Shown: piece by piece, positions 14,869-27,241 of the stretch
Layout: each line of letters opens with the position of its first letter
How positions within the stretch are numbered: the stretch's first letter is position 1
Assembly: GCF_002980555.1 (NCBI RefSeq)
Contig: NZ_PVBT01000004.1
Location: 310,001-374,000, forward strand
Origin: Phyllobacterium myrsinacearum
Lineage (GTDB): Bacteria > Pseudomonadota > Alphaproteobacteria > Rhizobiales > Rhizobiaceae
DNA: 64,000 nt
Direction: 5' to 3'
Program-made: the position numbers and the translations under genes
The notes under the pieces: model-generated
Seen by the model: the letters and a program-made list of their open reading frames with translations, nothing else
Told to the model about the DNA's origin: nothing
Databases searched by the model: none

Positions 14869-14911
14869 TCTATTACGTATCATTTACGTGTGCTATGCTT
14901 GGATGGGGAGA

Positions 14912-15373
14912 ATGATCAGTATGAGACATGACAGCCGCCTATCGAGAATGCTCCACGTTCTGATCCATATGGATCGGCACGACGGTTCGATCACATCGGA
15001 CAACATCGCAAAGATGCTGAACACCAATCCGGTTGTGGTGCGACGAACCATGGCGGGCTTAAGAAATGCCGGTTATGTCCGCTCCGACAAGGGACATGGC
15101 GGCGGCTGGATACTGGCGCGTCCGCTGGAGGAAATATCGCTGCTTGACGTGCACCAGGCACTGGGGCGCCCGGAAATGTTTGCAATCGGCATAGCCATCG
15201 ACCATCCGGATTGTCTCGTGGAGCAATCGGTCAATGCAGCTTTGACGGATGCCTTCGATGCCGCGGAACAAATGCTCCTGTCGCGTTTTGCCGAGGTGAC
15301 ACTGTCCGATATCGCGCGCGATTTCGACCTTCGATTCCGGAACTTGACCGAGAGGCCAGCACGAACGGTTTGA
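14912..15373 (+). CDS. Rrf2-family transcriptional regulator
   Basis: The 153-residue protein has an N-terminal winged helix (SRMLHVLIHM, ITSDNIAKMLNTNPVVVRRTMAGL, GHGGGWIL) typical of Rrf2. It lacks the three-cysteine cluster of iron-sulfur members such as IscR and NsrR; a single Cys sits in HPDCLVE. It therefore resembles the cysteine-oxidation or ligand-sensing members (YwnA/HypR-like). ATG 14912 follows GGGGAG; ATG 14921 is an alternative. It probably regulates the divergent thioredoxin-reductase-like gene through the inverted repeat between them. Confidence 0.85.
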   Translation: MISMRHDSRLSRMLHVLIHMDRHDGSITSDNIAKMLNTNPVVVRRTMAGLRNAGYVRSDKGHGGGWILARPLEEISLLDVHQALGRPEMFAIGIAIDHPDCLVEQSVNAALTDAFDAAEQMLLSRFAEVTLSDIARDFDLRFRNLTERPARTV

Positions 15374-15522: not shown

Positions 15523-17001
15523 ATGGAATTGGCATATCGCGAATTGAATGGAGAGGTCACTCCGGAGAACGCCGGTGTCCAGTTGAAGCGGTATCCCATT
15601 GTCGTTGATCTGGATAAGACGCTTATCCTGACTGACACACTGCACGAACAAGTGGTTGCAGCTCTTTTCACGCAGCCAGCAACGCTTCTTCATGCGGCTC
15701 CCAGCATGCTGCGCGGCCGTGCTGCTTTGAAGGCTGCTTTGGCGTCAAAGGTCGACCTGGCATCAACGGTCCTGCCGCTTCGCGAAGATCTTGTGAAGTG
15801 GTTGCGCGAGCAAGCTGCCGCCGGCCGCGAAATTCATCTCTGTTCTGCGGCAAATCAGGCCGTGGTGGACAATATTTCGCGGCGTATCGGCATTTTTTCG
15901 AGCGCCATCGGCTCCGATACCGCAAATCTGAAGGGACGTGTGAAGGCGGAGCATCTGGCGCGTACATTCCCCGATGGCTTTGTCTATGTCGGCGACAGCA
16001 GGGCGGATTTGGCGGTGTGGAAACTGGCCGCAGGAATAGTCCTGGCAGGCGTTTCCACGGGCGTGGCAAAGGCAGCGCGTGAGCTGGGCAAGCCGATTGA
16101 AGCGGAGTTCAGCAACCATCCTCTGACTTTGAAGGATAGTCTCAAAGCCCTGCGCGTGCATCATTGGTCGAAGAACGCTCTGATTTTCGTTCCGCTCATT
16201 CTGGCGCATGCCTGGGGCGATATGGCCGTCCTTCGCGATACGGTTCTGGGTCTTTTCTGTCTCCTGGTCGTCACGTCTTCAACCTATCTTCTCAATGATC
16301 TGGCCGATCTCAGCGCCGATCGGCAGCATTGGTCGAAGCGCAACCGTGCGCTGGCAAGCGGACGGCTTCCGATTGCCGCCGGCCTGGCGATGGCCGGCAT
16401 CGGTCTCGTCGCGGCATTTGTCGGCTCTCTCCTGCTAACGCCTTATTTTACCCTCGCATTGGCAAGCTATCTGGTGCTGACACTGGCATACTCCTTTGGC
16501 CTCAAGCGCGTGCCTATCCTCGATACGCTGATCATCGGCATTTTGTTTACGACCCGTCTCATCATGGGGATCACGCTGCTCCGGCTGCCCGCATCCGCAT
16601 GGCTTTTGACCTTTTCAGTGTTCTTCTTCTTCTCTCTGGCGGTCGCCAAGCGCCACACTGAAATTATTCGCGCCGCCTCCACGGGGTCTCACAGCCTCGC
16701 CAGCCGGGGCTATATGCTTGAGGACGCACCGCTAACCCTGGCGTTTGGCATAGCTTCCGCCGTGGCGTCTTTGCTGGTCATGGTCCTGTTCATCGTTGAG
16801 GAGATGCTTCCGGGTTCGGTTTATTCTCATCCGAATCTGCTCGGTGGGATTCCCGTTTTCCTTGCGATCTGGGTTGGCCGGATTTGGCTGCTGGCGCATC
16901 GGGGGCGCATGAATGACGATCCGGTCAGTTTCGCTCTGCGCGACAAGCCCAGTGTCCTGCTCGGCTTTTTGGTCGCGGTGCTGTTCGTGGCCGCTCTATG
17001 A
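15523..17001 (+). CDS. HAD phosphatase-UbiA prenyltransferase fusion (putative polyprenyl-phosphate phosphoribosyltransferase/phosphatase)
   Basis: The 492-residue protein has two parts. Residues about 25-190 are a HAD phosphatase with the nucleophile motif DLDKT (Asp29, Asp31) and VGDSRADLAVW. Residues about 200-492 are a UbiA-type polytopic membrane domain with the polyprenyl-diphosphate/Mg motif NDLADLSAD from residue 258 and a second DTL motif after GLKRVPI. The mycobacterial relative Rv3806c transfers phosphoribose from PRPP to decaprenyl phosphate; the HAD part would remove the 5-phosphate. Stop and start overlap with the DprE1-like gene, so it is one operon. Family is firm; the PRPP reaction is inferred from context. 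Confidence 0.82.
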   Translation: MELAYRELNGEVTPENAGVQLKRYPIVVDLDKTLILTDTLHEQVVAALFTQPATLLHAAPSMLRGRAALKAALASKVDLASTVLPLREDLVKWLREQAAAGREIHLCSAANQAVVDNISRRIGIFSSAIGSDTANLKGRVKAEHLARTFPDGFVYVGDSRADLAVWKLAAGIVLAGVSTGVAKAARELGKPIEAEFSNHPLTLKDSLKALRVHHWSKNALIFVPLILAHAWGDMAVLRDTVLGLFCLLVVTSSTYLLNDLADLSADRQHWSKRNRALASGRLPIAAGLAMAGIGLVAAFVGSLLLTPYFTLALASYLVLTLAYSFGLKRVPILDTLIIGILFTTRLIMGITLLRLPASAWLLTFSVFFFFSLAVAKRHTEIIRAASTGSHSLASRGYMLEDAPLTLAFGIASAVASLLVMVLFIVEEMLPGSVYSHPNLLGGIPVFLAIWVGRIWLLAHRGRMNDDPVSFALRDKPSVLLGFLVAVLFVAAL

Positions 17002-18332
17002 GATCATTTGTCTCGACAGACGATATCCGCTCTTGGGGGGGAATCCTGCAGGGGCAGCATTTTGTCAGCCAGCCGAATTGGCGGGACCAACTGCCCCGCA
17101 GCATTGCAGAGGCACGTGATGCTGGCCAGAGTCTTCTCGCCATAGGCCTTGGCCGCTCTTACGGTGACAGCGGACTGAATCCCGGCGGGGCAATTGTCGA
17201 CATGACTGCGCTCGACCGGATTATTTCGTTTGACCCGGCAACGGGATTGTTGCGTGCGGAAGCCGGACTCTCTTTTGCCGATATCCTCGATCTGTTTGTT
17301 CGGCGCGGGTTTTTTTTGCCGGTCACCCCGGGGACGCGCTTTGTAACCCTGGGCGGGGCCATTGCAAATGACGTGCATGGCAAGAACCATCATCGTGCTG
17401 GAACGATAGGCAGATGGGTGCGTCGCATCGGGCTGCTTCGGTCGGATGGCACCGAGATCGAGCTGAGAGATGATGATCAAACCGGATTGTTCGCTGCGAC
17501 GATCGGCGGGCTCGGGCTGACGGGACTGATCACATGGGCTGAAATTGAGCTGATGCGCATTCCCAGTGCACTCATGGACGTCGAAACACTGCCCTTTGCC
17601 AATGTGGACGAATTCTTTGCCGTGGCCGCCGAGAGCGAAGACAGTGCCGATTACACGGTGGCGTGGGTGGATTGTCTGGCGAAGGGAAATGCTCTCGGGA
17701 GAGGGTTGTTCACACGTGGACGGCATGCACCCGGAGGAACAAAGCTGGCAAGGGTGGGGAAACCGAAACTAACCGTACCCTTTTCCATGCCGTCGTTTGT
17801 CCTGAACAACCTGTCAATCGGCCTGTTCAACAGCCTGTATTTTTACAGGGGCCGTCGCGCGGCCGGCAAGGCGACCACCCCTTATCTGCCGTATTTCTAC
17901 CCGCTGGACAGCATCGGCCATTGGAACAGGATATACGGCCGCCGGGGGATGTATCAATACCAGTCCGTTGTGCCGCCCGTCGTGGCAAGGGATGCAACCA
18001 CGGAAATGCTCAAAGCCATCTCGAAAGCGGGCGAAGGCTCGTTCCTTGCGGTGCTCAAGACGTTCGGCGAGAAGACATCGCCCGGCCTCCTGTCCTTTCC
18101 ACAGGCTGGTACAACGCTCGCCCTTGATTTTCCCAACCGTGGCCAGTTGACTCTTGATTTGCTGAGCCGTCTCGATGACATCGTGCGCGAAGCTGGAGGG
18201 CGGCTGTACCCTGCCAAGGACGGGCGCATTTCCGCAGCGATGTTTCGCGCTGGCTATCCCGCTTGGGAAGCGTTTGCACAGCATGTCGATCCAGTATTCT
18301 CGTCCGCCTTTTGGCGCCGGATAAGCGAGTAA
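16998..18332 (+). CDS. DprE1-like FAD-dependent polyprenylphosphoryl-ribose 2'-oxidase
   Basis: At 444 residues this is an FAD/PCMH-type oxidase with the DprE1-typical LGGAIANDVHGKNHHRAGT and IGLGRSYGDSGLN. DprE1 oxidises decaprenylphosphoryl-ribose at C2', the first half of epimerisation to arabinose. The C-terminal part preserves VLKTFGE...SFP...LDFP, and the residue matching the benzothiazinone-reactive cysteine of mycobacterial DprE1 appears to be Ala375. It overlaps the UbiA fusion by 4 bp (ATGA) and is followed by a DprE2-like gene 17 bp downstream, the same pairing as in actinobacteria. Rhizobial NoeO-type Nod-factor arabinosylation proteins belong to the same family. Confidence 0.85.
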   Translation: MRSFVSTDDIRSWGGILQGQHFVSQPNWRDQLPRSIAEARDAGQSLLAIGLGRSYGDSGLNPGGAIVDMTALDRIISFDPATGLLRAEAGLSFADILDLFVRRGFFLPVTPGTRFVTLGGAIANDVHGKNHHRAGTIGRWVRRIGLLRSDGTEIELRDDDQTGLFAATIGGLGLTGLITWAEIELMRIPSALMDVETLPFANVDEFFAVAAESEDSADYTVAWVDCLAKGNALGRGLFTRGRHAPGGTKLARVGKPKLTVPFSMPSFVLNNLSIGLFNSLYFYRGRRAAGKATTPYLPYFYPLDSIGHWNRIYGRRGMYQYQSVVPPVVARDATTEMLKAISKAGEGSFLAVLKTFGEKTSPGLLSFPQAGTTLALDFPNRGQLTLDLLSRLDDIVREAGGRLYPAKDGRISAAMFRAGYPAWEAFAQHVDPVFSSAFWRRISE

Positions 18333-18349
18333 AGAAGAGGAATAATTTC

Positions 18350-19087
18350 GTGCGTGTCATCATATTGGGAGCGACGTCGGCGATTGCCGAAGCGACGGCT
18401 CGCCTCTACGCAAGCGAAGGTGCCGATCTGTTGCTGGTCGGGCGGCAACAAGCCAAGCTCGAGGCCATCGCCGCTGACTTGAAGGTGCGGGGCGCCGCCC
18501 GCGCCGAGACTGCCGTTTGTGATCTGGCAGCGCCAAAGGATGCACGTTCTGCGCTCGCGCAATTCTGTGCGACGCTCGGCGGCGTGGACCATGTGCTTAT
18601 CGCCTATGGTGTGCTGGGCGAGCAGGATGAGGCGGAGCAGTCCACGGACGTTGCCGAGGAGATATTGCAGGTCAATTTCAATTCAGTTGCCGCTTGGTGC
18701 CTCGCTGTCGCCGATATATTCGAGGCGCAGGCGAGGGGTTCGCTTGTCGTTCTGGGGTCCGTGGCTGGCGATCGGGGGCGGCGCGCCAATTATGTCTATG
18801 GCGCGGCCAAGGCTGGGCTTGCCACACTGGTTGAAGGTATCTCTCATCGCTTTGCCAGCAACGGCCCGCGCGCTGCCATCGTCAAACCGGGGCCAACCAT
18901 TACGCCCATGACGGAGGGTATGAACCGCAAAGGCGCCCTGTGGGCAACTCCCGAACAGATTGCCAGAGTGGCGCGTCGCGCCGCGGATCGTACTGGCCCA
19001 GTTTTCTACGCCCCCGGCCGCTGGCGTTTGATCATGCTGATCATCCGCAATCTGCCGACGGTGATTTTCAATCGGATGAGCATATGA
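18350..19087 (+). CDS. DprE2-like short-chain dehydrogenase (ketoribose reductase)
   Basis: A 245-residue SDR with the cofactor motif VIILGATSAIAEATARLY at the very N-terminus, LGSVAGDRG carrying the catalytic Ser, and YGAAK (Tyr-x3-Lys). DprE2 enzymes reduce the 2'-keto intermediate of DprE1 to give polyprenylphosphoryl-arabinose; its position directly after the DprE1-like gene supports this. The GTG at 18350 is preferred because AAGAAGAGG precedes it and because the SDR motif starts there. Its stop overlaps the next gene's ATG. Confidence 0.82.
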   Translation: MRVIILGATSAIAEATARLYASEGADLLLVGRQQAKLEAIAADLKVRGAARAETAVCDLAAPKDARSALAQFCATLGGVDHVLIAYGVLGEQDEAEQSTDVAEEILQVNFNSVAAWCLAVADIFEAQARGSLVVLGSVAGDRGRRANYVYGAAKAGLATLVEGISHRFASNGPRAAIVKPGPTITPMTEGMNRKGALWATPEQIARVARRAADRTGPVFYAPGRWRLIMLIIRNLPTVIFNRMSI

Positions 19088-20019
19088 CACGGCGGATTAT
19101 CATAACTGGTGCAGCAGGACTTGTCGGTCAGAATCTGATCGCCAGGCTGAAGACGAATCCGGATATCAAGATCGTAGGGATCGACAAGCATCCGACGAAT
19201 ACCGCCTTGCTGCGGCGGATGCATCCGGAAATCGAGACAATCGAGGCTGATCTTGCCAAACCGGGCCCGTGGATGGATGCGCTGGCTGGTGCCGATGCCC
19301 TGGTGCTCAACCAGGCGCAGATTGGCGGTCTCCACGAACAGGAATTCACCGACAACAATGTCACGGCCACTGAAAATATTGTCGCGGCCATGCGAAAGCA
19401 CAATACCCCGTATTTCGTGCAGATTTCTTCTTCGGTCGTGCACTCGCAGGCCGATGATTTCTACACACGTTCCAAGACGGCCCAGGAGAAATTCATCGAT
19501 ACCGTCGGCGATATTCCGCATCTGATATTGCGCCCGACGCTGATGTTTGGCTGGTTTGATCGCAAACATCTGGGCTGGTTGCGCAGATTTATGGACCGGA
19601 CCGCCATCTTTCCCATTCCCGGTGATGGCAAGTTTATCCGTCAGCCACTTTATGTCGGCGATTTCGCCGCAATCATCGCGTCAGGTTTGGCCAGTCGCGC
19701 GACAGGAACCTATGACATATCGGGCCTGGAACAGGTTCACTATGGCGATCTCATCCAACTGATACATGACACGGTCAAGCCGAAAGCCAGGATCATTCAT
19801 CTGCCCTATCACCTGTTCTGGGCGCTGTTGTTCGTGTATGGCAAGTTCAACAGCAATCCGCCGTTCACCACCCGGCAGCTCGAAGCGCTGGTCATACCGG
19901 AAACATTTCCGGTGATCGATTGGCCGGAGATATTCGGCATCAAAGCAACACCGCTGCGCACTGCGCTGGAAGAAACATATCTTGATGCCCGCTATTCCGG
20001 CATCGTTCTGGATTTCTGA
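19084..20019 (+). CDS. NAD-dependent epimerase/dehydratase family protein
   Basis: The 311-residue extended SDR starts with IIITGAAGLVGQNLIARL (GxxGxxG). The expected YxxxK is at YTRSKTAQE, after the serine-rich ISSSVVHS. LRPTLMFGW is typical of nucleotide-sugar epimerases and related enzymes. The start ATG overlaps the previous stop (ATGA), so it is translationally coupled to the DprE-like genes. Its substrate could be a nucleotide sugar or a lipid-linked sugar; I cannot tell which. It is within a polysaccharide or glycan operon. Confidence 0.75.
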   Translation: MTRRIIITGAAGLVGQNLIARLKTNPDIKIVGIDKHPTNTALLRRMHPEIETIEADLAKPGPWMDALAGADALVLNQAQIGGLHEQEFTDNNVTATENIVAAMRKHNTPYFVQISSSVVHSQADDFYTRSKTAQEKFIDTVGDIPHLILRPTLMFGWFDRKHLGWLRRFMDRTAIFPIPGDGKFIRQPLYVGDFAAIIASGLASRATGTYDISGLEQVHYGDLIQLIHDTVKPKARIIHLPYHLFWALLFVYGKFNSNPPFTTRQLEALVIPETFPVIDWPEIFGIKATPLRTALEETYLDARYSGIVLDF

Positions 20020-20028
20020 GGATTTTAC

Positions 20029-21309
20029 ATGAGCAGGATCATTGTCATAGGTGCTGGCCCGATGGGGCTTGCCGCGGCGCACCGGGCCGTAACACTTGGT
20101 CATGAAGTTGATTTGATCGAGGCGGACAGCAAGCCGGGCGGCATGGCCGCGCACTTTGACTTTGGCGGGTTGTCGATCGAGAGATATTATCATTTCGTCT
20201 GCAAGACCGACAAGCCGACCTTCGCCTTGATGGACGAGCTTGGTATTGGCGGCAAGATGCGGTGGACGCCAACCTCCATGGCCTATTACATGAAAGACAA
20301 GGTCCATCCTTGGGGAAGCCCGATTTCACTGCTGATGTTCCCGCATCTGAGCTTCATTGCAAAGTTGCGCACTGGTGTGCAGATGTTTTTGACGACGAAG
20401 GCAAAGGTCTTCGACAGCATTGAAAAATTGACTGCCAAACAATGGATTGAGCGCGGATCCGGCAAGGAGGTCTATGAGACGCTTTGGCGCCGGTTGATGC
20501 AGCTCAAGTTCTACGAGCTGTCGGACGATATCTCCGCGTCCTGGATCGCCACGCGCATCAAGCGCATCGGCAATTCCCGCCGTTCGATATTTCAGGAGGA
20601 ACTGGGCTATATCGAGGGAGGAAGCGAGACCCTCGTCAAGGCGCTGGTATCCGCGTTCGAAGCAAAGGGCGGCCGGCTGCATCTCGCAGCGCCGGCCGAA
20701 AAGATAGAAACCGAGAACGGGAGGGTCACCGGTGTGACAGCAGGCGGGCGGTTTTTTCCCGGCGATGCGGTGATTTCCACGGTGCCGACGCCGTTGGTGT
20801 CCAGGCTTGCTCCCGATCTTCCGCAGTCTTGGCGGGACCGGTACGACGCCATCCGCAACATCGGCGTTGTCTGCCTGCTGTTCAAGCTCAAACGGTCGGT
20901 GACGAAGAATTTCTGGCTCAACATCGTTGATGAGAACATTGATATTCCCGGTATCATCGAGTTTTCGAACCTGCGTCCGGTGGATGACACGATTGTGTAC
21001 GTGCCCTACTATATGCCGACCAGCCAGCCGAAATGGCAGTGGACAGACCAGCAGTTCATCGACGAGGCGTTCGGTTATATCCGGCGCATCAATCCGGCAA
21101 TTACCCAAACCGATCTCATCGATGCAACGGTGGGCCGTCTTCGGTATGCCCAGCCGGTGTGTGAGCCCAATTTTTACGAAAAACTGCCGGAGGTTCAGAC
21201 ACCGATCTCTGGCCTGCAGATTGCCGATACCTGCTTCTACTATCCCGAAGACCGGGGTGTGTCGGAAAGCATCCGTTTTGGCAGGGCCATGGCCGAGGCG
21301 GTCGTCTGA
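20029..21309 (+). CDS. FAD-dependent amine oxidase/protoporphyrinogen oxidase-like protein
   Basis: This 426-residue protein has an N-terminal dinucleotide-binding motif (IIVIGAGPMGLAAAHRA) followed by EADSKPGGMAAHF, and ends with a cofactor-binding segment ADTCFYYPEDRGVSESIRFG. The family (COG1232-like) includes desaturases and is common in glycan loci beside UbiA and glycosyltransferase genes; UDP-galactopyranose mutase is a distant alternative. It lies 9 bp after the epimerase gene and its stop overlaps the GtrA start. Reaction unknown. Confidence 0.75.
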   Translation: MSRIIVIGAGPMGLAAAHRAVTLGHEVDLIEADSKPGGMAAHFDFGGLSIERYYHFVCKTDKPTFALMDELGIGGKMRWTPTSMAYYMKDKVHPWGSPISLLMFPHLSFIAKLRTGVQMFLTTKAKVFDSIEKLTAKQWIERGSGKEVYETLWRRLMQLKFYELSDDISASWIATRIKRIGNSRRSIFQEELGYIEGGSETLVKALVSAFEAKGGRLHLAAPAEKIETENGRVTGVTAGGRFFPGDAVISTVPTPLVSRLAPDLPQSWRDRYDAIRNIGVVCLLFKLKRSVTKNFWLNIVDENIDIPGIIEFSNLRPVDDTIVYVPYYMPTSQPKWQWTDQQFIDEAFGYIRRINPAITQTDLIDATVGRLRYAQPVCEPNFYEKLPEVQTPISGLQIADTCFYYPEDRGVSESIRFGRAMAEAVV

Positions 21310-21734
21310 TGCGTGAACGAGCGACTGCCATCGTCGCCTCGCCATTTCTACGTTTTGTCATTTCGGGCGGTATTGCCGCTGCGGTGAATATTGTCTCGCG
21401 CATTGCCCTGTCGCAGATCATGCCGTTCAGCGCGGCAATCGTACTGGCTTACCTCGCCGGAATGACAACAGCCTATATATTGATGAAGCTGTTCGTCTTC
21501 GATCAGTCGGGCAGTTCCGTGCGCCGGGAATACATACGATTTGGCCTGGTGAATCTGGTGTCACTCCTGCAGGTGTGGCTGGTCAGCGTCGGTCTGGCCC
21601 GCTGGTTTTTCCCCCTGATCAATTACACGTGGAACGCGGACACGACGGCCCATATTATCGGCGTCCTGAGCCCCGTCATCACCAGCTACCTCGCGCATAA
21701 ATCATTTACTTTCGCTCGCAAGGATGGACAATAA
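21309..21734 (+). CDS. GtrA family membrane protein
   Basis: A small 141-residue membrane protein with about four hydrophobic segments and the GtrA start FLRFVISGGIAAAVNIVSRIALS and a late SYLAHKSFTF. GtrA proteins are thought to flip or escort polyprenyl-phosphate-linked sugars across the inner membrane. The mycobacterial homologue Rv3789 lies next to DprE1/DprE2 and has been linked to arabinan assembly, so the same partnership is likely here. It starts inside the preceding stop codon. Confidence 0.85.
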   Translation: MRERATAIVASPFLRFVISGGIAAAVNIVSRIALSQIMPFSAAIVLAYLAGMTTAYILMKLFVFDQSGSSVRREYIRFGLVNLVSLLQVWLVSVGLARWFFPLINYTWNADTTAHIIGVLSPVITSYLAHKSFTFARKDGQ

Positions 21735-21737
21735 TCA

Positions 21738-23900
21738 ATGTATAGAATGGTCACAAGGAACGCTATATTTCTGGCGCTGGTCTGTTTACTCTCCTTGGTT
21801 CTCATAGTTTATTCAATTTTATTCGTACGTGAAAACTATATGATCCCCCTTTTTTGGGATCAGTGGGAATTTGCAATTGACCTGGCAAAATCAAAGCAAG
21901 ACGCCCTCTCGCTCCAGTATTTTTTTAAAGCGCATAACGAGCATGTCATCGCAACAACAAAGCTGCTTTTCTTCCTCGATTATTATTTTTTCAGCCTGAC
22001 GAATGGTCCCCTCGTTGTTTCAATTGGAATTGCAACATTTTGTGTTGCTTGGCTCTTGGCCAAGCTGTTGTTCATCAATGACAAAGAGAGCCGGTATTTC
22101 TATCCCTTCTTTCTGCTTTTCTCTGCATCCGGATTTTCGCTGGCCCAGTGGGAAAACTTGCTCTGGGGTTTCCAGCCGCAATTTTATCTCGTGCTGATCT
22201 TCACGCTGATGAGCTGTCTTATCGGATTGAAGATAAGCGATCGTGAACAAGTCACGCCCTCTTGGTGGTTCACAGTTTTGATCGTCACAACAGGTTTGGG
22301 TGTGTTTTCAATGGGCAACGGCATCGCATTGCCTGTTTCCATCGTCATCCTGTTTGTTCTGCGGCGCTACCGGCCTGTCAAAACGGTTCTGTATGCATTC
22401 ATTGCGGCGTTGTTCATTGGTGCTCTCGTCGCCCTGACGAGAGGTGCTCCTACCGTTGGAGATCCAGCACTAAAGACACTTGGCAATCTCATGTCTTTCT
22501 TCTTCGGCATGCTTGGAAGCCCCATCAGTAGTCGAGGGGTTTTTGCCGCAATATGTGGCGTGATATTGTTTGGCGCTTTCGGCATTCTATTTTTGTTTCA
22601 TATTCTGATGCCGTTTCTGCGCAGACGACCACTTGATGAAGCCTTGGTAGGGCTTTTTGCCTTTGCTAGTTTTCTCTTCGCAACGGCTGTTGGCGCAACC
22701 TGGGGGAGAACGGCGCTGGGCACAGGTGCAGCGCTGGCATCGCGCTACTCGACACCCATGCTTGTTTTGTGGATGACACTCTTCGCGATACTGTTTCGAG
22801 TGACAGTGATATCCGATCGCCGGCCGTCACATCGTCAGCTTCGATCAGGATTGTGGATTATTCTTGCTTTAGGTGTCGCGGCGTGGACCAGCTTCAGGCC
22901 CGGCAATATTGCAGGGGCAGGTCAGGCCAACGCAGCAAACCAGGCTGGATACTTTCTGTCTTCCGGTGTGGGTCTTGATGAGCAATTGCTGAAATTGTAC
23001 CCCTCACCAAGCCGAATAAGGCCGGCCATTGATTATCTGCGTAACGCCAAACTGAACCTATTCGCCGAGAGCCCGGATTTATCGGCCTCGAGTTGGAAGC
23101 AATGGACGGATAAACCGGCCCAAGCTTGTGAACTTGAATACGTCGATAAAGTCCAGCGCCTTTCTGCTTCGGCGTGGCAGGCGGTCGGCTGGGTGACAAA
23201 TGCTGCACGGCAAACTCCGAGTTGGATAGTTGCCGTCGACTCCAGTCAGAATGTTCTGGGATACACGGTCCCACTTCAACCTCGTTCCGATGTTGTCAAA
23301 GCTGTTGGCCTAAGCGACAGCTATCGGGGGTTTACCGTGCCCATAAACATGACTTCTGCCAACACAGCTTTCCCCATATCTCTATTGGCTATTTTTGGTG
23401 AAGACGAATCGCCTTGCCGCATAAATTTGCCGCCTTTACCCAATGGACCTTTTCTGATTCAACCGGGCGAGCTCGCACCGCTTCGAACAGAGGTCGTACA
23501 TTCGGGAGCAACGGCCAGTCCAGGAATACCGCCAGTGCTTTCAATCGGTGCCCCATATGAGGGGTCCGAAATCAGCGGCACTTGGGTTTCTTCCGACGAG
23601 AACGTTGGCAAAATAACTTACAATGTTCTCGATACCAGCTGTCAATCGGTCATTCTTCCAATTTTACGCGGACCCTCAGCAGAAGGGTTAAGTCTTGTCA
23701 TCAAATCCAATGGCAAAATGATATCTGATGACACAAAGGTGTTCGATTCACTCCAACCCCATTTATGGCAATATTTGCAGATAAGTGCGTTTGATGCCTG
23801 CAAGGAAGGCGAAAAATTAAACCTGAGTATAACGCTGGAAGATAACGGACGGGGATGGGGAGCGTGGGGTGCCATGGCAACTCCAGGTTTGCAACGGTAG
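21738..23900 (+). CDS. Large polytopic membrane protein, putative GT-C glycosyltransferase
   Basis: The 720-residue protein has many hydrophobic segments over about residues 1-390 and a soluble C-terminal region (about 390-720). Near the first loop is PLFWDQWEF, then KAHNEHVI and WENLLWGFQPQF; an acidic residue in the first extracytoplasmic loop is typical of GT-C glycosyltransferases that use lipid-phosphate sugars. Membrane half plus soluble beta-rich tail is also the layout of mycobacterial Emb/Aft arabinosyltransferases, though I see no direct sequence signature. Being 4 bp after gtrA, it is the candidate user of the lipid-linked arabinose. DNA is clearly more AT-rich than the genes before it. 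Confidence 0.6.
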   Translation: MYRMVTRNAIFLALVCLLSLVLIVYSILFVRENYMIPLFWDQWEFAIDLAKSKQDALSLQYFFKAHNEHVIATTKLLFFLDYYFFSLTNGPLVVSIGIATFCVAWLLAKLLFINDKESRYFYPFFLLFSASGFSLAQWENLLWGFQPQFYLVLIFTLMSCLIGLKISDREQVTPSWWFTVLIVTTGLGVFSMGNGIALPVSIVILFVLRRYRPVKTVLYAFIAALFIGALVALTRGAPTVGDPALKTLGNLMSFFFGMLGSPISSRGVFAAICGVILFGAFGILFLFHILMPFLRRRPLDEALVGLFAFASFLFATAVGATWGRTALGTGAALASRYSTPMLVLWMTLFAILFRVTVISDRRPSHRQLRSGLWIILALGVAAWTSFRPGNIAGAGQANAANQAGYFLSSGVGLDEQLLKLYPSPSRIRPAIDYLRNAKLNLFAESPDLSASSWKQWTDKPAQACELEYVDKVQRLSASAWQAVGWVTNAARQTPSWIVAVDSSQNVLGYTVPLQPRSDVVKAVGLSDSYRGFTVPINMTSANTAFPISLLAIFGEDESPCRINLPPLPNGPFLIQPGELAPLRTEVVHSGATASPGIPPVLSIGAPYEGSEISGTWVSSDENVGKITYNVLDTSCQSVILPILRGPSAEGLSLVIKSNGKMISDDTKVFDSLQPHLWQYLQISAFDACKEGEKLNLSITLEDNGRGWGAWGAMATPGLQR

Positions 23901-23995
23901 TAATCTAATATGCTCAAATTAGGCGTGATCGTGTTGCTGTCCAGACATGAGCCACTGAGCTAGAGAATAGTCGTCTTGTGAAGGAAACAACGTTG

Positions 23996-26900
23996 ATGAA
24001 TCATGATTCTAGCGAGAATACCCCCGCTTCGGGCGAAGTCGCCTCGCAATGCCTGAGCAAAGCACTTTCTCGGGCTTCGTTCTGGCCGATGAACCATATC
24101 GCGCCAGAATCCGCATGGCTGGAGCACGGTCCTTTTGCATTCTGGCTCATTGATGCACTCAGGCCTCGAGTTGTTGTCGAGCTGGGAACGCATGCCGGGT
24201 TCTCTTATTTTGCATTTTGCCAGGCGGTGCAAAGGCTTGAAATCGACACGCGATGTTACGCGGTCGATACATGGAAGGGTGATGAGCATTCCGGAGAATA
24301 TTCAGATGCGGTCTATGAACTGGTAAAGACCTACAACGACAAAAATTACTCGGTCTTTTCCGATCTTGTACGATCAACCTTTGATGAAGCTTGTTTGCAT
24401 TTCAGTGATGGGACGATTGATTTGCTTCATATCGATGGCCGCCATTTTATCGAGGATGTGAAACACGACTTTGAAACTTGGAAGCCCAAGTTGTCCGATC
24501 GGGCAGTTGTGGTTTTCCATGATACCAACGTCAGGGAACGAAGCTTTGGCGTCTATAAATTATGGGAAACGTTACGCACATCCTATCCGTCCTTTGAGTT
24601 TTTTCACGGGCATGGGCTCGGCGTTCTTGGAATTGGTAAAGAGTTACCAACTGCCATTCGTGCCATGTTTGAGCTCATGGGATCTGAAGCAGGCACTGTC
24701 AGAGAATCTTATGCACGTCTTGGCGCTGTTGTTAAAGCTGAAGCCATCGCGCATCTTAAACAAGAAGCTTTAGACGTGAAAATCACTGAACTCAACCAGC
24801 ATTCTCAGCACATTCGGGACTTGGAAAGTGAAATACGGGATAAGCATGATTTGAATGGCAGCCTGAAACATGAAAATGAGAGTTTGAAACGCGCAAACGA
24901 TAGTCTGAAACATGAAAATGAGAGTTCCAAGCTTGAAAATGATAGCCTGCAGCATGAAAACGAAGGCCTGAAGCGTGAAAATGAGAGTTCCAAGCGTGAG
25001 AACGATAGACTGAAGCATGAAAATGAGAGTTCCAAGCTTGAAAATGATAGCCTGCAGCATGAAAACGAAGACCTGAAGCGTGAAAATGAGAGTTCCAAGC
25101 GTGAGAACGATAGGCTGAAGCATGAAAATGAGAGTCTGCAGCATGAGATTGGCGGTCTGATTCACAAGAATGACGGCCTAAAAAATGGGGTTGTAGAGCT
25201 GGAGTCGAAGTCCGTTGGAATAAGCCAGTCTGTGAATGAACTTCAAAATCAAATATCCCAGAAAACTCAGGAAATTCTGGCGTACAAGCATTCGACGAGT
25301 TGGAAAATGACCTCGCCCTATCGATTTCTTGGCAATCGAATGCGTAACATATTGAGAAAACTCTTCTTTCTTTCAAAAACTATACAGCGCAGTGGCGGTG
25401 TTAAACCATCTATGGGCCATGCTTTGAAAATAATTCAGCAAGAGGGTGTGCATGGTTTAGCGCACCGGATCAAAGCTGCGGATAGCACAAATCCTAAGGG
25501 TATCGTGTCTGGCAATGATTACTCAGAGTGGCTGGATCGTTACGCGATGCTGGACGGGCTGGCGGCAGAAGAAGTACACGCGCATTTAGAGCGATCCAAG
25601 AAAACCCCTCTGATATCCATTGTGATGCCTGTTTATAATCCTAATCTGGAGTGGCTTGAGGAAGCAATACAATCAGTCCGAAACCAGCTCTATCCGCACT
25701 GGCAGCTTTGCATTGCTGATGACAAGTCTGCGGATCCAAATGTTCGTCAAGCGCTTCTTAACTATCAGGCTTTGGATGAGCGAATAAAAGTCACTTTTCG
25801 TGCGGCCAACGGCCATATTTCTGCGGCCTCCAATAGCGCGCTTGAACTCGCAACGGGTGAGTGGATTGCACTGATGGATCAGGATGATCTGCTTGCACTA
25901 GAGGCGCTTTATCGCGTTTTTGAAGCCATTGAGTGCAATCCGGACGCCGCATTGATTTACTCGGACGAGGATAAAATTGACGAAGCCGGAAACCGGTTCA
26001 GTCCTTACTTCAAATCTGACTGGAATCCGGATCTGTTCCTATCGCACAATATGATCTCTCATTTGGGCGTCTATAAATCAGACTTGGTGAAGAGTCTTGG
26101 CGGATTTAGAGAAGGCAGAGAGGGCTCTCAGGACTATGATCTTGCTTTGCGCTGCATTGAGGTGTTGAAAGCCGATCAAATCTTGCATATTCCGCGCGTG
26201 CTCTACCATTGGCGCAGCCACGCAGATAGCACCGCTCAGTCAGGAAGCAACAAAGGATATGCGCTCCGAGTAGGACAGCAAGTACTCAACGAACATTTCC
26301 AACGTGTGGGAATCAAAGCCACATCGGAACTGCTCGACTTTGGCATGTACAGAACTCGATACGATTTGCCTGATGCACTTCCTCTCGTGAGTCTTATAAT
26401 TCCGACGCGAAATGGATTGAACCTGTTGCGGCAATGTATAGACAGCATTGTCGCAAAGACAGAATACACGAATTACGAGATAATCGTTATTGATAACAAT
26501 TCGGATGATGAGGATACTCTGAAGTATCTCGATGAGATTTCTCGCGAAAAGAAGATTCGTGTTATTCGTGATACGAGACCATTTAACTATTCTGCGTTGA
26601 ATAATAGTGCGGTGGCGGAAGCCAGAGGTGAGTTCATCGGTCTGATCAATAACGATATTGAAGTTATATCGGTTAATTGGTTGAGTGAGATGGTTAGCAT
26701 AGCCAGCCAGCCTGGTGTGGGAGCGGTCGGTGCGCGTCTGTGGTATCCGGACGACACGCTTCAACATGCAGGCGTAATATTGGGTCTATTGGGTGCTGCT
26801 GGCCACGCCCACAAGGGATTGCCGCGCGGTGCACCGGGTTATTTTGGGCGGGCGCAACTAACTCAAACCCTTAGCGCTGTTACCGCTGCCTGTTTGATCG

Positions 26901-27241
26901 TCCGAAAGGATATTTTTGAGCAAGTTGGCGGATTGGACGAAGAGAACCTCAAGGTAGCCTTTAACGATGTCGACTTCTGCATTCGCGTTCGTGAGGCAGG
27001 GTACCGTAATGTTTGGACGCCATATGCGGAGCTTTATCATCATGAATCTGCTTCGCGCGGGCTTGAGGACACGCCGGAAAAACAGGCAAGGTTCCTGGGG
27101 GAAGTGAAGTTTCTAAAAGAACGTTGGGGTAAAGTGCTGCAAGAAGATCCCGCTTATAGTCCGAATTTAACTCTCGATCGAGATGACTATTCGCTCAGTT
27201 GGCCGCCAAGAATTAAGACGAGGGCTGCGGTGCGGGAATGA
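23996..27241 (+). CDS. Methyltransferase / coiled coil / tandem GT2 glycosyltransferase
   Basis: A 1081-residue multi-domain protein. Residues about 40-230 are a class I SAM methyltransferase-like domain (VVVELGTHAGFSYF, LLHIDGRHFIEDV, VVFHDTNV). Residues about 288-398 are a long heptad coiled coil built of KHENES/KRENDS repeats. Two GT2 domains follow: one from about 537 (LISIVMPVYNP, MDQDD, QDYDLALR) and one from about 796 (VSLIIPTRNG, INNDIE, NDVDFCIRVREAG). It probably polymerises and caps a cell-surface glycan in the cytoplasm. ATG 23996 is preferred over GTG 23978 because AAGGAAA precedes it. The gene is AT-richer than the flanking kdp region, suggesting transfer. Confidence 0.82.
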   Translation: MNHDSSENTPASGEVASQCLSKALSRASFWPMNHIAPESAWLEHGPFAFWLIDALRPRVVVELGTHAGFSYFAFCQAVQRLEIDTRCYAVDTWKGDEHSGEYSDAVYELVKTYNDKNYSVFSDLVRSTFDEACLHFSDGTIDLLHIDGRHFIEDVKHDFETWKPKLSDRAVVVFHDTNVRERSFGVYKLWETLRTSYPSFEFFHGHGLGVLGIGKELPTAIRAMFELMGSEAGTVRESYARLGAVVKAEAIAHLKQEALDVKITELNQHSQHIRDLESEIRDKHDLNGSLKHENESLKRANDSLKHENESSKLENDSLQHENEGLKRENESSKRENDRLKHENESSKLENDSLQHENEDLKRENESSKRENDRLKHENESLQHEIGGLIHKNDGLKNGVVELESKSVGISQSVNELQNQISQKTQEILAYKHSTSWKMTSPYRFLGNRMRNILRKLFFLSKTIQRSGGVKPSMGHALKIIQQEGVHGLAHRIKAADSTNPKGIVSGNDYSEWLDRYAMLDGLAAEEVHAHLERSKKTPLISIVMPVYNPNLEWLEEAIQSVRNQLYPHWQLCIADDKSADPNVRQALLNYQALDERIKVTFRAANGHISAASNSALELATGEWIALMDQDDLLALEALYRVFEAIECNPDAALIYSDEDKIDEAGNRFSPYFKSDWNPDLFLSHNMISHLGVYKSDLVKSLGGFREGREGSQDYDLALRCIEVLKADQILHIPRVLYHWRSHADSTAQSGSNKGYALRVGQQVLNEHFQRVGIKATSELLDFGMYRTRYDLPDALPLVSLIIPTRNGLNLLRQCIDSIVAKTEYTNYEIIVIDNNSDDEDTLKYLDEISREKKIRVIRDTRPFNYSALNNSAVAEARGEFIGLINNDIEVISVNWLSEMVSIASQPGVGAVGARLWYPDDTLQHAGVILGLLGAAGHAHKGLPRGAPGYFGRAQLTQTLSAVTAACLIVRKDIFEQVGGLDEENLKVAFNDVDFCIRVREAGYRNVWTPYAELYHHESASRGLEDTPEKQARFLGEVKFLKERWGKVLQEDPAYSPNLTLDRDDYSLSWPPRIKTRAAVRE
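24911..25120 (+). repeat. Two tandem 105-bp repeats encoding five heptads each
   Basis: Positions 24911-25015 and 25016-25120 are identical except for two bases; a third, diverging copy begins at 25121. The 105-bp period equals 35 codons or five heptads, itself built from a 21-bp unit encoding variants of LKHENES. Such DNA can expand or contract in frame by slippage. Confidence 0.95.

What the first reader, a model, noticed from the sequence alone, without database searches (positions are those of the whole stretch)
15523..23900. A complete polyprenyl-phosphoryl-D-arabinose pathway in a Gram-negative genome
One same-strand run encodes a UbiA-type phosphoribosyltransferase, DprE1-like oxidase, DprE2-like reductase, GtrA protein and a large GT-C-like membrane protein. 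This is the content of the mycobacterial Rv3789-Rv3792 plus Rv3806c set used for arabinan. Start/stop overlaps at 16998, 19084 and 21309 show one transcript. It implies D-arabinofuranose on a surface glycan, pilin, LPS or another acceptor of this bacterium. The rhizobial noe genes for Nod-factor arabinosylation are the nearest known precedent.
Basis: partly seen in the sequence, partly recalled or inferred. Interest (0 to 1): 0.85.

Follow-up and report, generated by a model that had tools for sequence, protein, structure and literature searches.

The report
Arabinose-lipid pathway with two extra enzymes
A soil bacterium carries genes that look able to make a lipid-bound arabinose like that of the tuberculosis cell wall, together with two further enzymes, found almost only in company with such genes, that may turn this arabinose into a different, still unidentified sugar before it is put on the cell surface.

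Summary
The operon is real (15523-23900, + strand, Phyllobacterium). By homology and motifs g1-g3 (HAD-UbiA, DprE1-like, DprE2-like) lead from PRPP to polyprenyl-P-D-arabinofuranose. Such routes in Gram-negatives are already in print (Kelly 2024, PMC11127046; rhizobial noe operons). New here: g4 and g5 are an extension that hardly occurs without DprE1. Of 80 named g4 loci, 79 have g5, 69 have DprE1 and 65 have g1-g6 in the stretch held; of the 11 without DprE1 there, 7 were searched genome-wide and 7 have it. 19 of 19 loci fetched for g4 from two further families have g1-g6. A noe operon lacks g4 and g5; Corynebacterium glutamicum lacks PRK07233. So D-Araf is probably an intermediate. Best reading: g4 and g5 convert polyprenyl-P-Araf into another pentose, GtrA flips it, the GT-C-like g7 attaches it. 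Boldest reading: g5 expands the ring and g4 inverts C4, giving L-xylopyranose, a known O-antigen side sugar. The product is unproven; D-Araf, D-lyxofuranose or a lipid-tail role of g5 remain open.

The parts
15523..17001 (+). g1: HAD phosphatase-UbiA fusion, predicted polyprenyl-P phosphoribosyltransferase plus 5-phosphatase
   Evidence: Pfam UbiA 1.3e-20 and HAD 3.1e-06; solved DPPR synthase 8j8j 2.5e-22; motifs DLDKT at residue 29 and NDLADLSAD at 258
16998..18332 (+). g2: DprE1-like FAD oxidase
   Evidence: solved DprE1 chain 21gq_A 1e-73, HGKNHH and AKD conserved
18350..19087 (+). g3: DprE2-like SDR; GTG start at 18350 preferred (searches were run from 18347)
   Evidence: NCBIfam DprE2 4.7e-50, under its cut-off; YGAAK motif and junction sequence
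   Evidence: Pfam Epimerase 3.2e-19; GAAGLVG and YTRSK motifs; alignment A1
   Evidence: NCBIfam 507 bits, cut-off 252; model mean pLDDT 95.1; amine-oxidase/phytoene-desaturase fold
21309..21734 (+). g6: GtrA-family membrane protein, predicted flippase
   Evidence: Pfam GtrA_DPMS_TM 1e-16
21738..23900 (+). g7: multi-TM GT-C-like protein with a C-terminal beta-rich region, predicted pentosyltransferase
   Evidence: no Pfam match for it; invariant D41, H66, H69, R324, R336, Y337 in 17 aligned proteins; Foldseek best match EmbA-EmbB 9.3e-06, low TM
23978..27241 (+). g8: methyltransferase plus two GT2 domains; neighbouring glycan gene, membership uncertain
   Evidence: Pfam Methyltransf_24 and Glycos_transf_2

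Best explanation
This is an extracytoplasmic pentose-glycosylation operon. g1 transfers ribose-5-phosphate from PRPP to polyprenyl phosphate and removes the 5-phosphate; g2 oxidises C2 and g3 reduces it, giving polyprenyl-P-D-arabinofuranose (inferred from homology and motifs). g4 and g5 then convert this lipid-linked arabinose into another sugar (inferred from their dependence on DprE1 and their absence from arabinose systems). g6 (GtrA) flips the lipid sugar and g7 (GT-C-like) attaches it to a surface glycan, perhaps a rhamnan (inferred, weak). The most likely chemistry is a change of ring form by g5 and inversion of a secondary OH by g4; this step has no direct evidence.
For: Homology and motifs of g1-g3. 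Prototype with biochemistry: HAD-UbiA ORF15 makes polyprenyl-P-Ribf and the SDR ORF13 changes the pentose (PMC11127046). Linkage: of 80 named g4 loci, 79 have g5, 69 have DprE1 and 65 have g1-g6; of the 11 without DprE1 in the locus 7 genomes were searched and 7 of 7 have it (4 loci on short contigs not tested). Three family searches found g4 in 38 genomes (7 of 298, 26 of 294, 5 of 250); for 19 of these I fetched the g4 region afresh and 19 of 19 have g1-g6. For comparison, 45 of 299 Pseudomonadota genomes have DprE1 at 1e-30. Controls: a noe operon has UbiA, GtrA, DprE1, DprE2 and a 401-aa protein but no g4 or g5; C. glutamicum has no PRK07233 match. The two gene orders 123456 and 456123 suggest two modules that are kept together.
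Against: No sugar analysis of a cassette-bearing strain was found. g5's best structural matches are phytoene desaturase and protoporphyrinogen oxidases, not a sugar mutase. g1-g3 miss the equivalog cut-offs. g7 is not conserved: 19 of 80 loci have a relative at 60 bits or more, and its fold match is weak. The 80 loci are the best of 496 relatives in a capped list, so they lean towards close relatives of the query; overlap between them and the 19 was not checked. One distant g4 match (G118, 27 %) was not checked for DprE1. The rest of the noe strain's genome was not searched for g4 or g5 beyond the plasmid records.
Confidence: 0.6

Rival explanations
1. One reading: the operon makes and attaches D-arabinofuranose, and g4 and g5 have an auxiliary role that does not change the sugar.
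For: g1-g3, GtrA and a GT-C-like protein are all there; DprE1 with and without the cassette are interleaved in the tree.
Against: A noe operon and, for PRK07233, C. glutamicum do without them. Of 19 loci fetched for DprE1, 13 show no g4 in the stretch held, so DprE1 does not need it.
Confidence: 0.17
2. g4 inverts C3 of polyprenyl-P-D-Araf, giving polyprenyl-P-D-lyxofuranose; g5 has a supporting redox role.
For: ORF13, an SDR, gives xylofuranose in place of ribofuranose in C. youngae; such a step after DprE1/E2 would give Lyxf.
Against: Kelly et al. state that Lyxf is in no solved carbohydrate structure, yet the cassette is not rare. It leaves g5 unexplained. ORF13 itself was not on hand for comparison.
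Confidence: 0.12
3. g5 acts on the polyprenyl chain (saturation or desaturation), as its phytoene-desaturase-like fold suggests, and g4 acts on the sugar or on the same lipid.
For: Foldseek top match 5mog phytoene desaturase, TMq 0.82; profile match 6.7e-17; weaker NCBIfam matches HpnE and CrtI family.
Against: The fold is shared by amine oxidases, protoporphyrinogen oxidases and UDP-galactopyranose mutase (3ukh, rank 45, TMq 0.73), so it does not point to one substrate. A change of the lipid would not explain the tie to DprE1.
Confidence: 0.15

Closest known systems
Three-component pentofuranose systems, Citrobacter youngae O1/O2 (Kelly et al. 2024, PMC11127046)
   Same: HAD-UbiA polyprenyl-P-ribose synthase, tailoring SDR (O2), flippase and GT-C acting outside the cytoplasm
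   Different: Prototype uses a MATE flippase and GT136, with ORF13 as its only epimerase; here GtrA, DprE1, DprE2, a further SDR and the FAD enzyme g5. The paper mentions 'multiple candidate epimerases or GT-Cs' in Xanthomonas and Bacillus without details in the text I read.
Rhizobial noe operon (noeC/N/H/O/P), Nod-factor arabinosylation
   Same: UbiA, GtrA, DprE1-like, DprE2-like and a further protein in one run, in the same order Hyphomicrobiales (L239)
   Different: No HAD match in the UbiA protein at 0.01, no g4, no g5; the 401-aa NoeP-like protein shows no relation to g7 (hhalign probability 0.1 %)
Mycobacterial Rv3789-Rv3792 and Rv3806c
   Same: DPPR synthase, DprE1, DprE2, GtrA-type protein, GT-C (set named by the finding and recalled)
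   Different: Separate, non-HAD phosphatase; no g4/g5 counterparts known to me (recalled; only C. glutamicum and only PRK07233 were tested)

Membership tests
Three-component pentofuranose system (Kelly 2024) | UbiA-type polyprenyl-P phosphoribosyltransferase with NDxxDxxxD | tested here: met
   NDLADLSAD aligned to the solved DPPR synthase; PRK08238 545 bits, cut-off 351, but DPPR synthase NF008977 134 bits, cut-off 234
Three-component pentofuranose system (Kelly 2024) | HAD phosphoribose phosphatase domain with nucleophile Asp | tested here: met
   Pfam HAD 28.2 bits, cut-off 27, and DLDKT
Three-component pentofuranose system (Kelly 2024) | MATE-family flippase | tested here: not met
   the operon has GtrA instead
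Three-component pentofuranose system (Kelly 2024) | GT136 transferase | not testable with these tools
   no GT136 model on hand; Pfam finds nothing for g7
DprE1 equivalog NF053785 | score over the curated cut-off | tested here: not met
   375.1 bits, cut-off 500
DprE1 equivalog NF053785 | similarity over most of the protein and HGKNHH and AKD motifs of a solved DprE1 | tested here: met
   residues 30-442, 1e-73
DprE2 equivalog NF053786 | score over the curated cut-off | tested here: not met
   170.6 bits, cut-off 250
Emb/Aft arabinosyltransferases (g7) | sequence family match | tested here: not met
   no Pfam match at 1e-3 for g7; 0 PDB sequences at 0.1 with profile A5; of 17 relatives one matches GtrII at 0.0033
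Emb/Aft arabinosyltransferases (g7) | GT-C fold | tested here: inconclusive
   EmbA-EmbB 9.3e-06, the one match under 0.001; AftA, PimE, ArnT and OST also in the top 20 (TMq 0.21-0.29), beside unrelated chains; model mean pLDDT 76.1
UDP-galactopyranose mutase (g5) | sequence family membership | tested here: not met
   Pfam gives Amino_oxidase and lists no mutase domain at 1e-3; mutase chain 1i8t at 4.2e-08 with profile A2, behind many oxidases
noe arabinosylation operon | gene content UbiA-GtrA-DprE1-DprE2-NoeP without further sugar enzymes | tested here: not met
   g4 and g5 present here, absent there

The most novel reading that the evidence does not exclude
The cassette makes polyprenyl-phosphoryl-L-xylopyranose. 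In a furanose the C4 oxygen is in the ring, so a C4 epimerase needs the pyranose form. g5 would expand polyprenyl-P-D-arabinofuranose to the pyranose, as a mutase, and g4, a GalE-like SDR, would invert C4; the C4 epimer of D-arabinose is L-xylose. All six genes then have a role, and it would give a donor for the L-xylose side groups of O-antigens.
Probability: 0.22. Interest if true: 0.82.

Novelty: new variant of a known kind. Interest (0 to 1): 0.6.

Why it matters
DprE1/E2 homologues in Gram-negatives can now be read as a sign of D-arabinose. If g4 and g5 change the sugar, that reading is wrong for the loci that carry them, and a lipid-linked pentose pathway has been overlooked. It is directly testable in vitro with farnesyl phosphate, PRPP and five proteins. 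It could also supply the donor for L-xylose on O-antigens, such as the terminal beta-L-xylose of Ralstonia solanacearum (PMC10450222, passages); no pathway for it showed in the listings of my searches.

Tried and rejected
Tried without result: a Ralstonia test of the L-xylose idea (searches found no record; no Ralstonia row among the 60 of 64 listed or the 60 of 571; the families are unnamed); E. coli genomes for g4-g5 DNA (no match, nucleotide search only); phage records for DprE1 (no match at 1e-20); Phyllobacterium O-polysaccharide data (only a reference title on 3-C-methyl-D-rhamnose in P. trifolii); promoter- and terminator-like sites (13 against a shuffle mean of 9.1, sd 2.9; 14 against 14.5); PADLOC (only a desaturase-type match for g5). 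Rejected: chance or misassembly (conserved in many genomes); a plain copy of the noe operon (gene content differs); g5 as a shown relative of galactopyranose mutase (sequence and fold do not single it out); g7 as an Emb/Aft member (no family match). A count of multi-TM proteins beside the cassette, 60 of 67 loci with g1-g5, has no control and is not used as evidence.
Full report
What is there. The window lies in a 5.4-Mb genome (G000). Seven + strand genes run from 15523 to 23900 with overlaps or gaps of at most 17 bases: g1 HAD-UbiA, g2 DprE1-like, g3 DprE2-like SDR, g4 extended SDR, g5 FAD enzyme PRK07233, g6 GtrA, g7 a large membrane protein. g8 (23978-27241) is a methyltransferase plus two GT2 domains. 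G+C falls from about 58 % in g1-g4 to 47-50 % over g7-g8.

g1 to g3. g1 matches a solved decaprenyl-phosphate phosphoribosyltransferase (8j8j, 2.5e-22), keeps the NDxxDxxxD motif and has an N-terminal HAD domain with DLDKT. It resembles ORF15 of Citrobacter youngae, which was shown to make farnesyl-P-ribofuranose (PMC11127046, section 7 read). g2 aligns with a solved DprE1 over residues 30-442 at 1e-73 with HGKNHH and AKD conserved. g3 is closest in NCBIfam to PRK07102 (252 bits, cut-off 267) and then DprE2 (171, cut-off 250). g1 and g2 are also under the cut-offs for DPPR synthase (134 of 234) and DprE1 (375 of 500). By homology these three give polyprenyl-P-D-arabinofuranose; nothing here shows it biochemically.

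g4 and g5. g4 has GAAGLVG and YTRSK, and D34 is invariant in 8 aligned proteins; an acid at that place usually means NAD (recalled), which suits an epimerase. g5 has the FAD motif and invariant E51-R52, Y54-H55-F56, Y404-Y405-P406 and D408-R409 in 53 proteins. Its model is good (mean pLDDT 95.1). Foldseek ranks phytoene desaturase first (TMq 0.82), then protoporphyrinogen and amine oxidases; UDP-galactopyranose mutase 3ukh is at rank 45 with TMq 0.73. The fold does not fix the substrate.

Linkage. In these loci g5 is present in 79 (L119 ends just after g4), DprE1 in 69, and all of g1-g6 in 65. Of the 11 without DprE1 in the locus, 7 genomes were searched and 7 of 7 have DprE1 elsewhere, three of them Acidobacteria records; L112, L113, L119 and L138, on short contigs, were not tested. 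In three unnamed families g4 was found in 7 of 298, 26 of 294 and 5 of 250 genomes, 38 in all. I fetched the g4 region of 19 of them afresh (5 from the first family, 14 from the second): 19 of 19 have g1-g6. Three more of the 38 (G440, G598, G531) had been found through their DprE1 and also have g1-g6; G455 has g1-g3 and g4 on different contigs; 15 were not fetched. Whether some of these genomes are also among the 80 was not checked. The G464 stretch was fetched for g5, not g4: it has a 33 % g5 relative alone. In 289 genomes of the class g4 was found in 3, counting the window's own; one of them (G118) is at 27 % and was not checked for DprE1.

The reverse does not hold. Of 20 loci fetched, L084 was picked for g4. 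Of the other 19, picked from the best DprE1 matches, 5 have g4 in the stretch, 1 (G455) on another contig, and 13 do not in the stretch held, some of it short. So DprE1 does without g4, but g4 hardly occurs without DprE1. PRK07233 was found in 6 of 200 Pseudomonadota genomes at 1e-40, 5 of them cassette genomes. Of 14 control genomes only Haloferax volcanii and Methanosarcina acetivorans ring, not Corynebacterium glutamicum.

Arabinose control. The nod plasmid of Sinorhizobium alkalisoli YIC4027 holds UbiA, GtrA, DprE1-like, DprE2-like and a 401-aa protein near nodABC. tblastn finds relatives of g1, g2, g3 and g6 there and none of g4 or g5 at 1e-3; a g4 search of all plasmid records did not list this one. 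The chromosome of that strain was not searched. In Rhizobium sp. IRBG74, deleting noeP abolished Nod-factor arabinosylation (PMC5080398, passages). That YIC4027 itself arabinosylates Nod factors I did not read.

Phylogeny. In a tree of 98 DprE1 (75 labelled cassette, from loci with g4 or, for G455, g4 on another contig; 12 without g4 in the stretch; 11 'type B') the window sits in a 19-row set of cassette rows (SH-aLRT 98), mostly Hyphomicrobiales. The cassette label is clustered (10 changes, shuffled mean 20.9, none of 500 as low) but not one clade: well-supported branches force at least 4 changes (quick method, midpoint root, no mycobacterial row). The extension thus seems to be gained or lost on similar DprE1, which suggests a common arabinose intermediate.

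g6 and g7. GtrA is a proposed flippase for lipid-P-sugars; direct evidence is lacking (PMC11127046). g7 has no Pfam match, but 17 aligned proteins share D41 after the first helix (WDQW in the window), H66 and H69 (HNEH), and R324, R336, Y337. The model (pLDDT 76.1) matches EmbA-EmbB at 9.3e-06, the only match under 0.001. AftA, PimE, ArnT and OST chains follow with TMq 0.21-0.29, mixed with unrelated chains; a CBM61 chain is at 1.6e-02. GT-C is likely; membership in a named family is not shown. g7 differs more between the two Phyllobacterium genomes (78 %) than g1-g6 (96-99 %), as a part that fits a variable acceptor might.

Acceptor. One conjugative plasmid carries the cassette near 'rhamnan synthesis F' and glycosyltransferase genes: weak support for a rhamnan acceptor.

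Product. Plain D-Araf leaves g4 and g5 without a task. D-lyxofuranose explains g4 but not g5, and no Lyxf is known in solved structures. A lipid-tail role fits g5's fold but not its tie to DprE1. The L-xylopyranose route explains both: a mutase frees O4, a GalE-type SDR inverts C4, and D-arabinose becomes L-xylose. L-xylose occurs as a terminal, non-stoichiometric, pyranosidic side residue in the O-polysaccharide of Ralstonia solanacearum (PMC10450222, passages), and 3-O-methylxylose (configuration not given) in the S. maltophilia O8 antigen (PMC5932162, passages). I could not test whether those genomes carry the cassette, so this stays a hypothesis.

Novelty. That pentofuranose donors are made this way in Gram-negatives is known. 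Kelly et al. mention multiple candidate epimerases or GT-Cs in Xanthomonas and Bacillus; their supplement was not readable here, so part of this cassette may be drawn there. In the listings of my searches I saw no paper on the g4-g5 extension; the library lacks most subscription journals.

Noticed in passing
L029:3752-11282 (and L027, L028, L030-L036): 'Type B' locus in 9 same-genus genomes (of 15 there with a 48-52 % DprE1; 6 not fetched) and 1 of the family: HAD-UbiA, DprE1-like, EamA-like protein, extended SDR, class III aminotransferase and, in 9 of 10, a convergent large gene without Pfam match; no DprE2 match at 1e-8. L085 has the same without the aminotransferase. The keto sugar made by DprE1 may be transaminated instead of reduced, giving an amino-pentose. 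These 11 DprE1 form one clade, support 100.
   Followed up: partly
window 16998-18332, residue A375: The DprE1-like protein has Ala where the solved DprE1 has Cys in its NICVDFP block (the benzothiazinone target, recalled); Ala is invariant in the 11 rows of A3.
   Followed up: no
window 14888-15373: An Rrf2-family regulator gene lies just upstream on the same strand; whether it controls the operon is unknown.
   Followed up: no
L240 (pDG3-1a, Agrobacterium salinitolerans): The six-gene cassette sits on a 110-kb plasmid typed as conjugative, near an IS3 transposase, so it may move between hosts.
   Followed up: no
L221: Genome G720 has two g4 copies 12.9 kb apart, each in a g3-g6 run; the second run reaches the end of the stretch held.
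   Followed up: no
L107 (Streptomyces sp. AcH 505 record): A cassette in a Streptomyces record groups with Rhodopseudomonas; contamination of the assembly is likely.
   Followed up: no
Haloferax volcanii, Methanosarcina acetivorans control genomes: Both have PRK07233 matches over the cut-off; what the family does in archaea could tell what g5 does.
   Followed up: no
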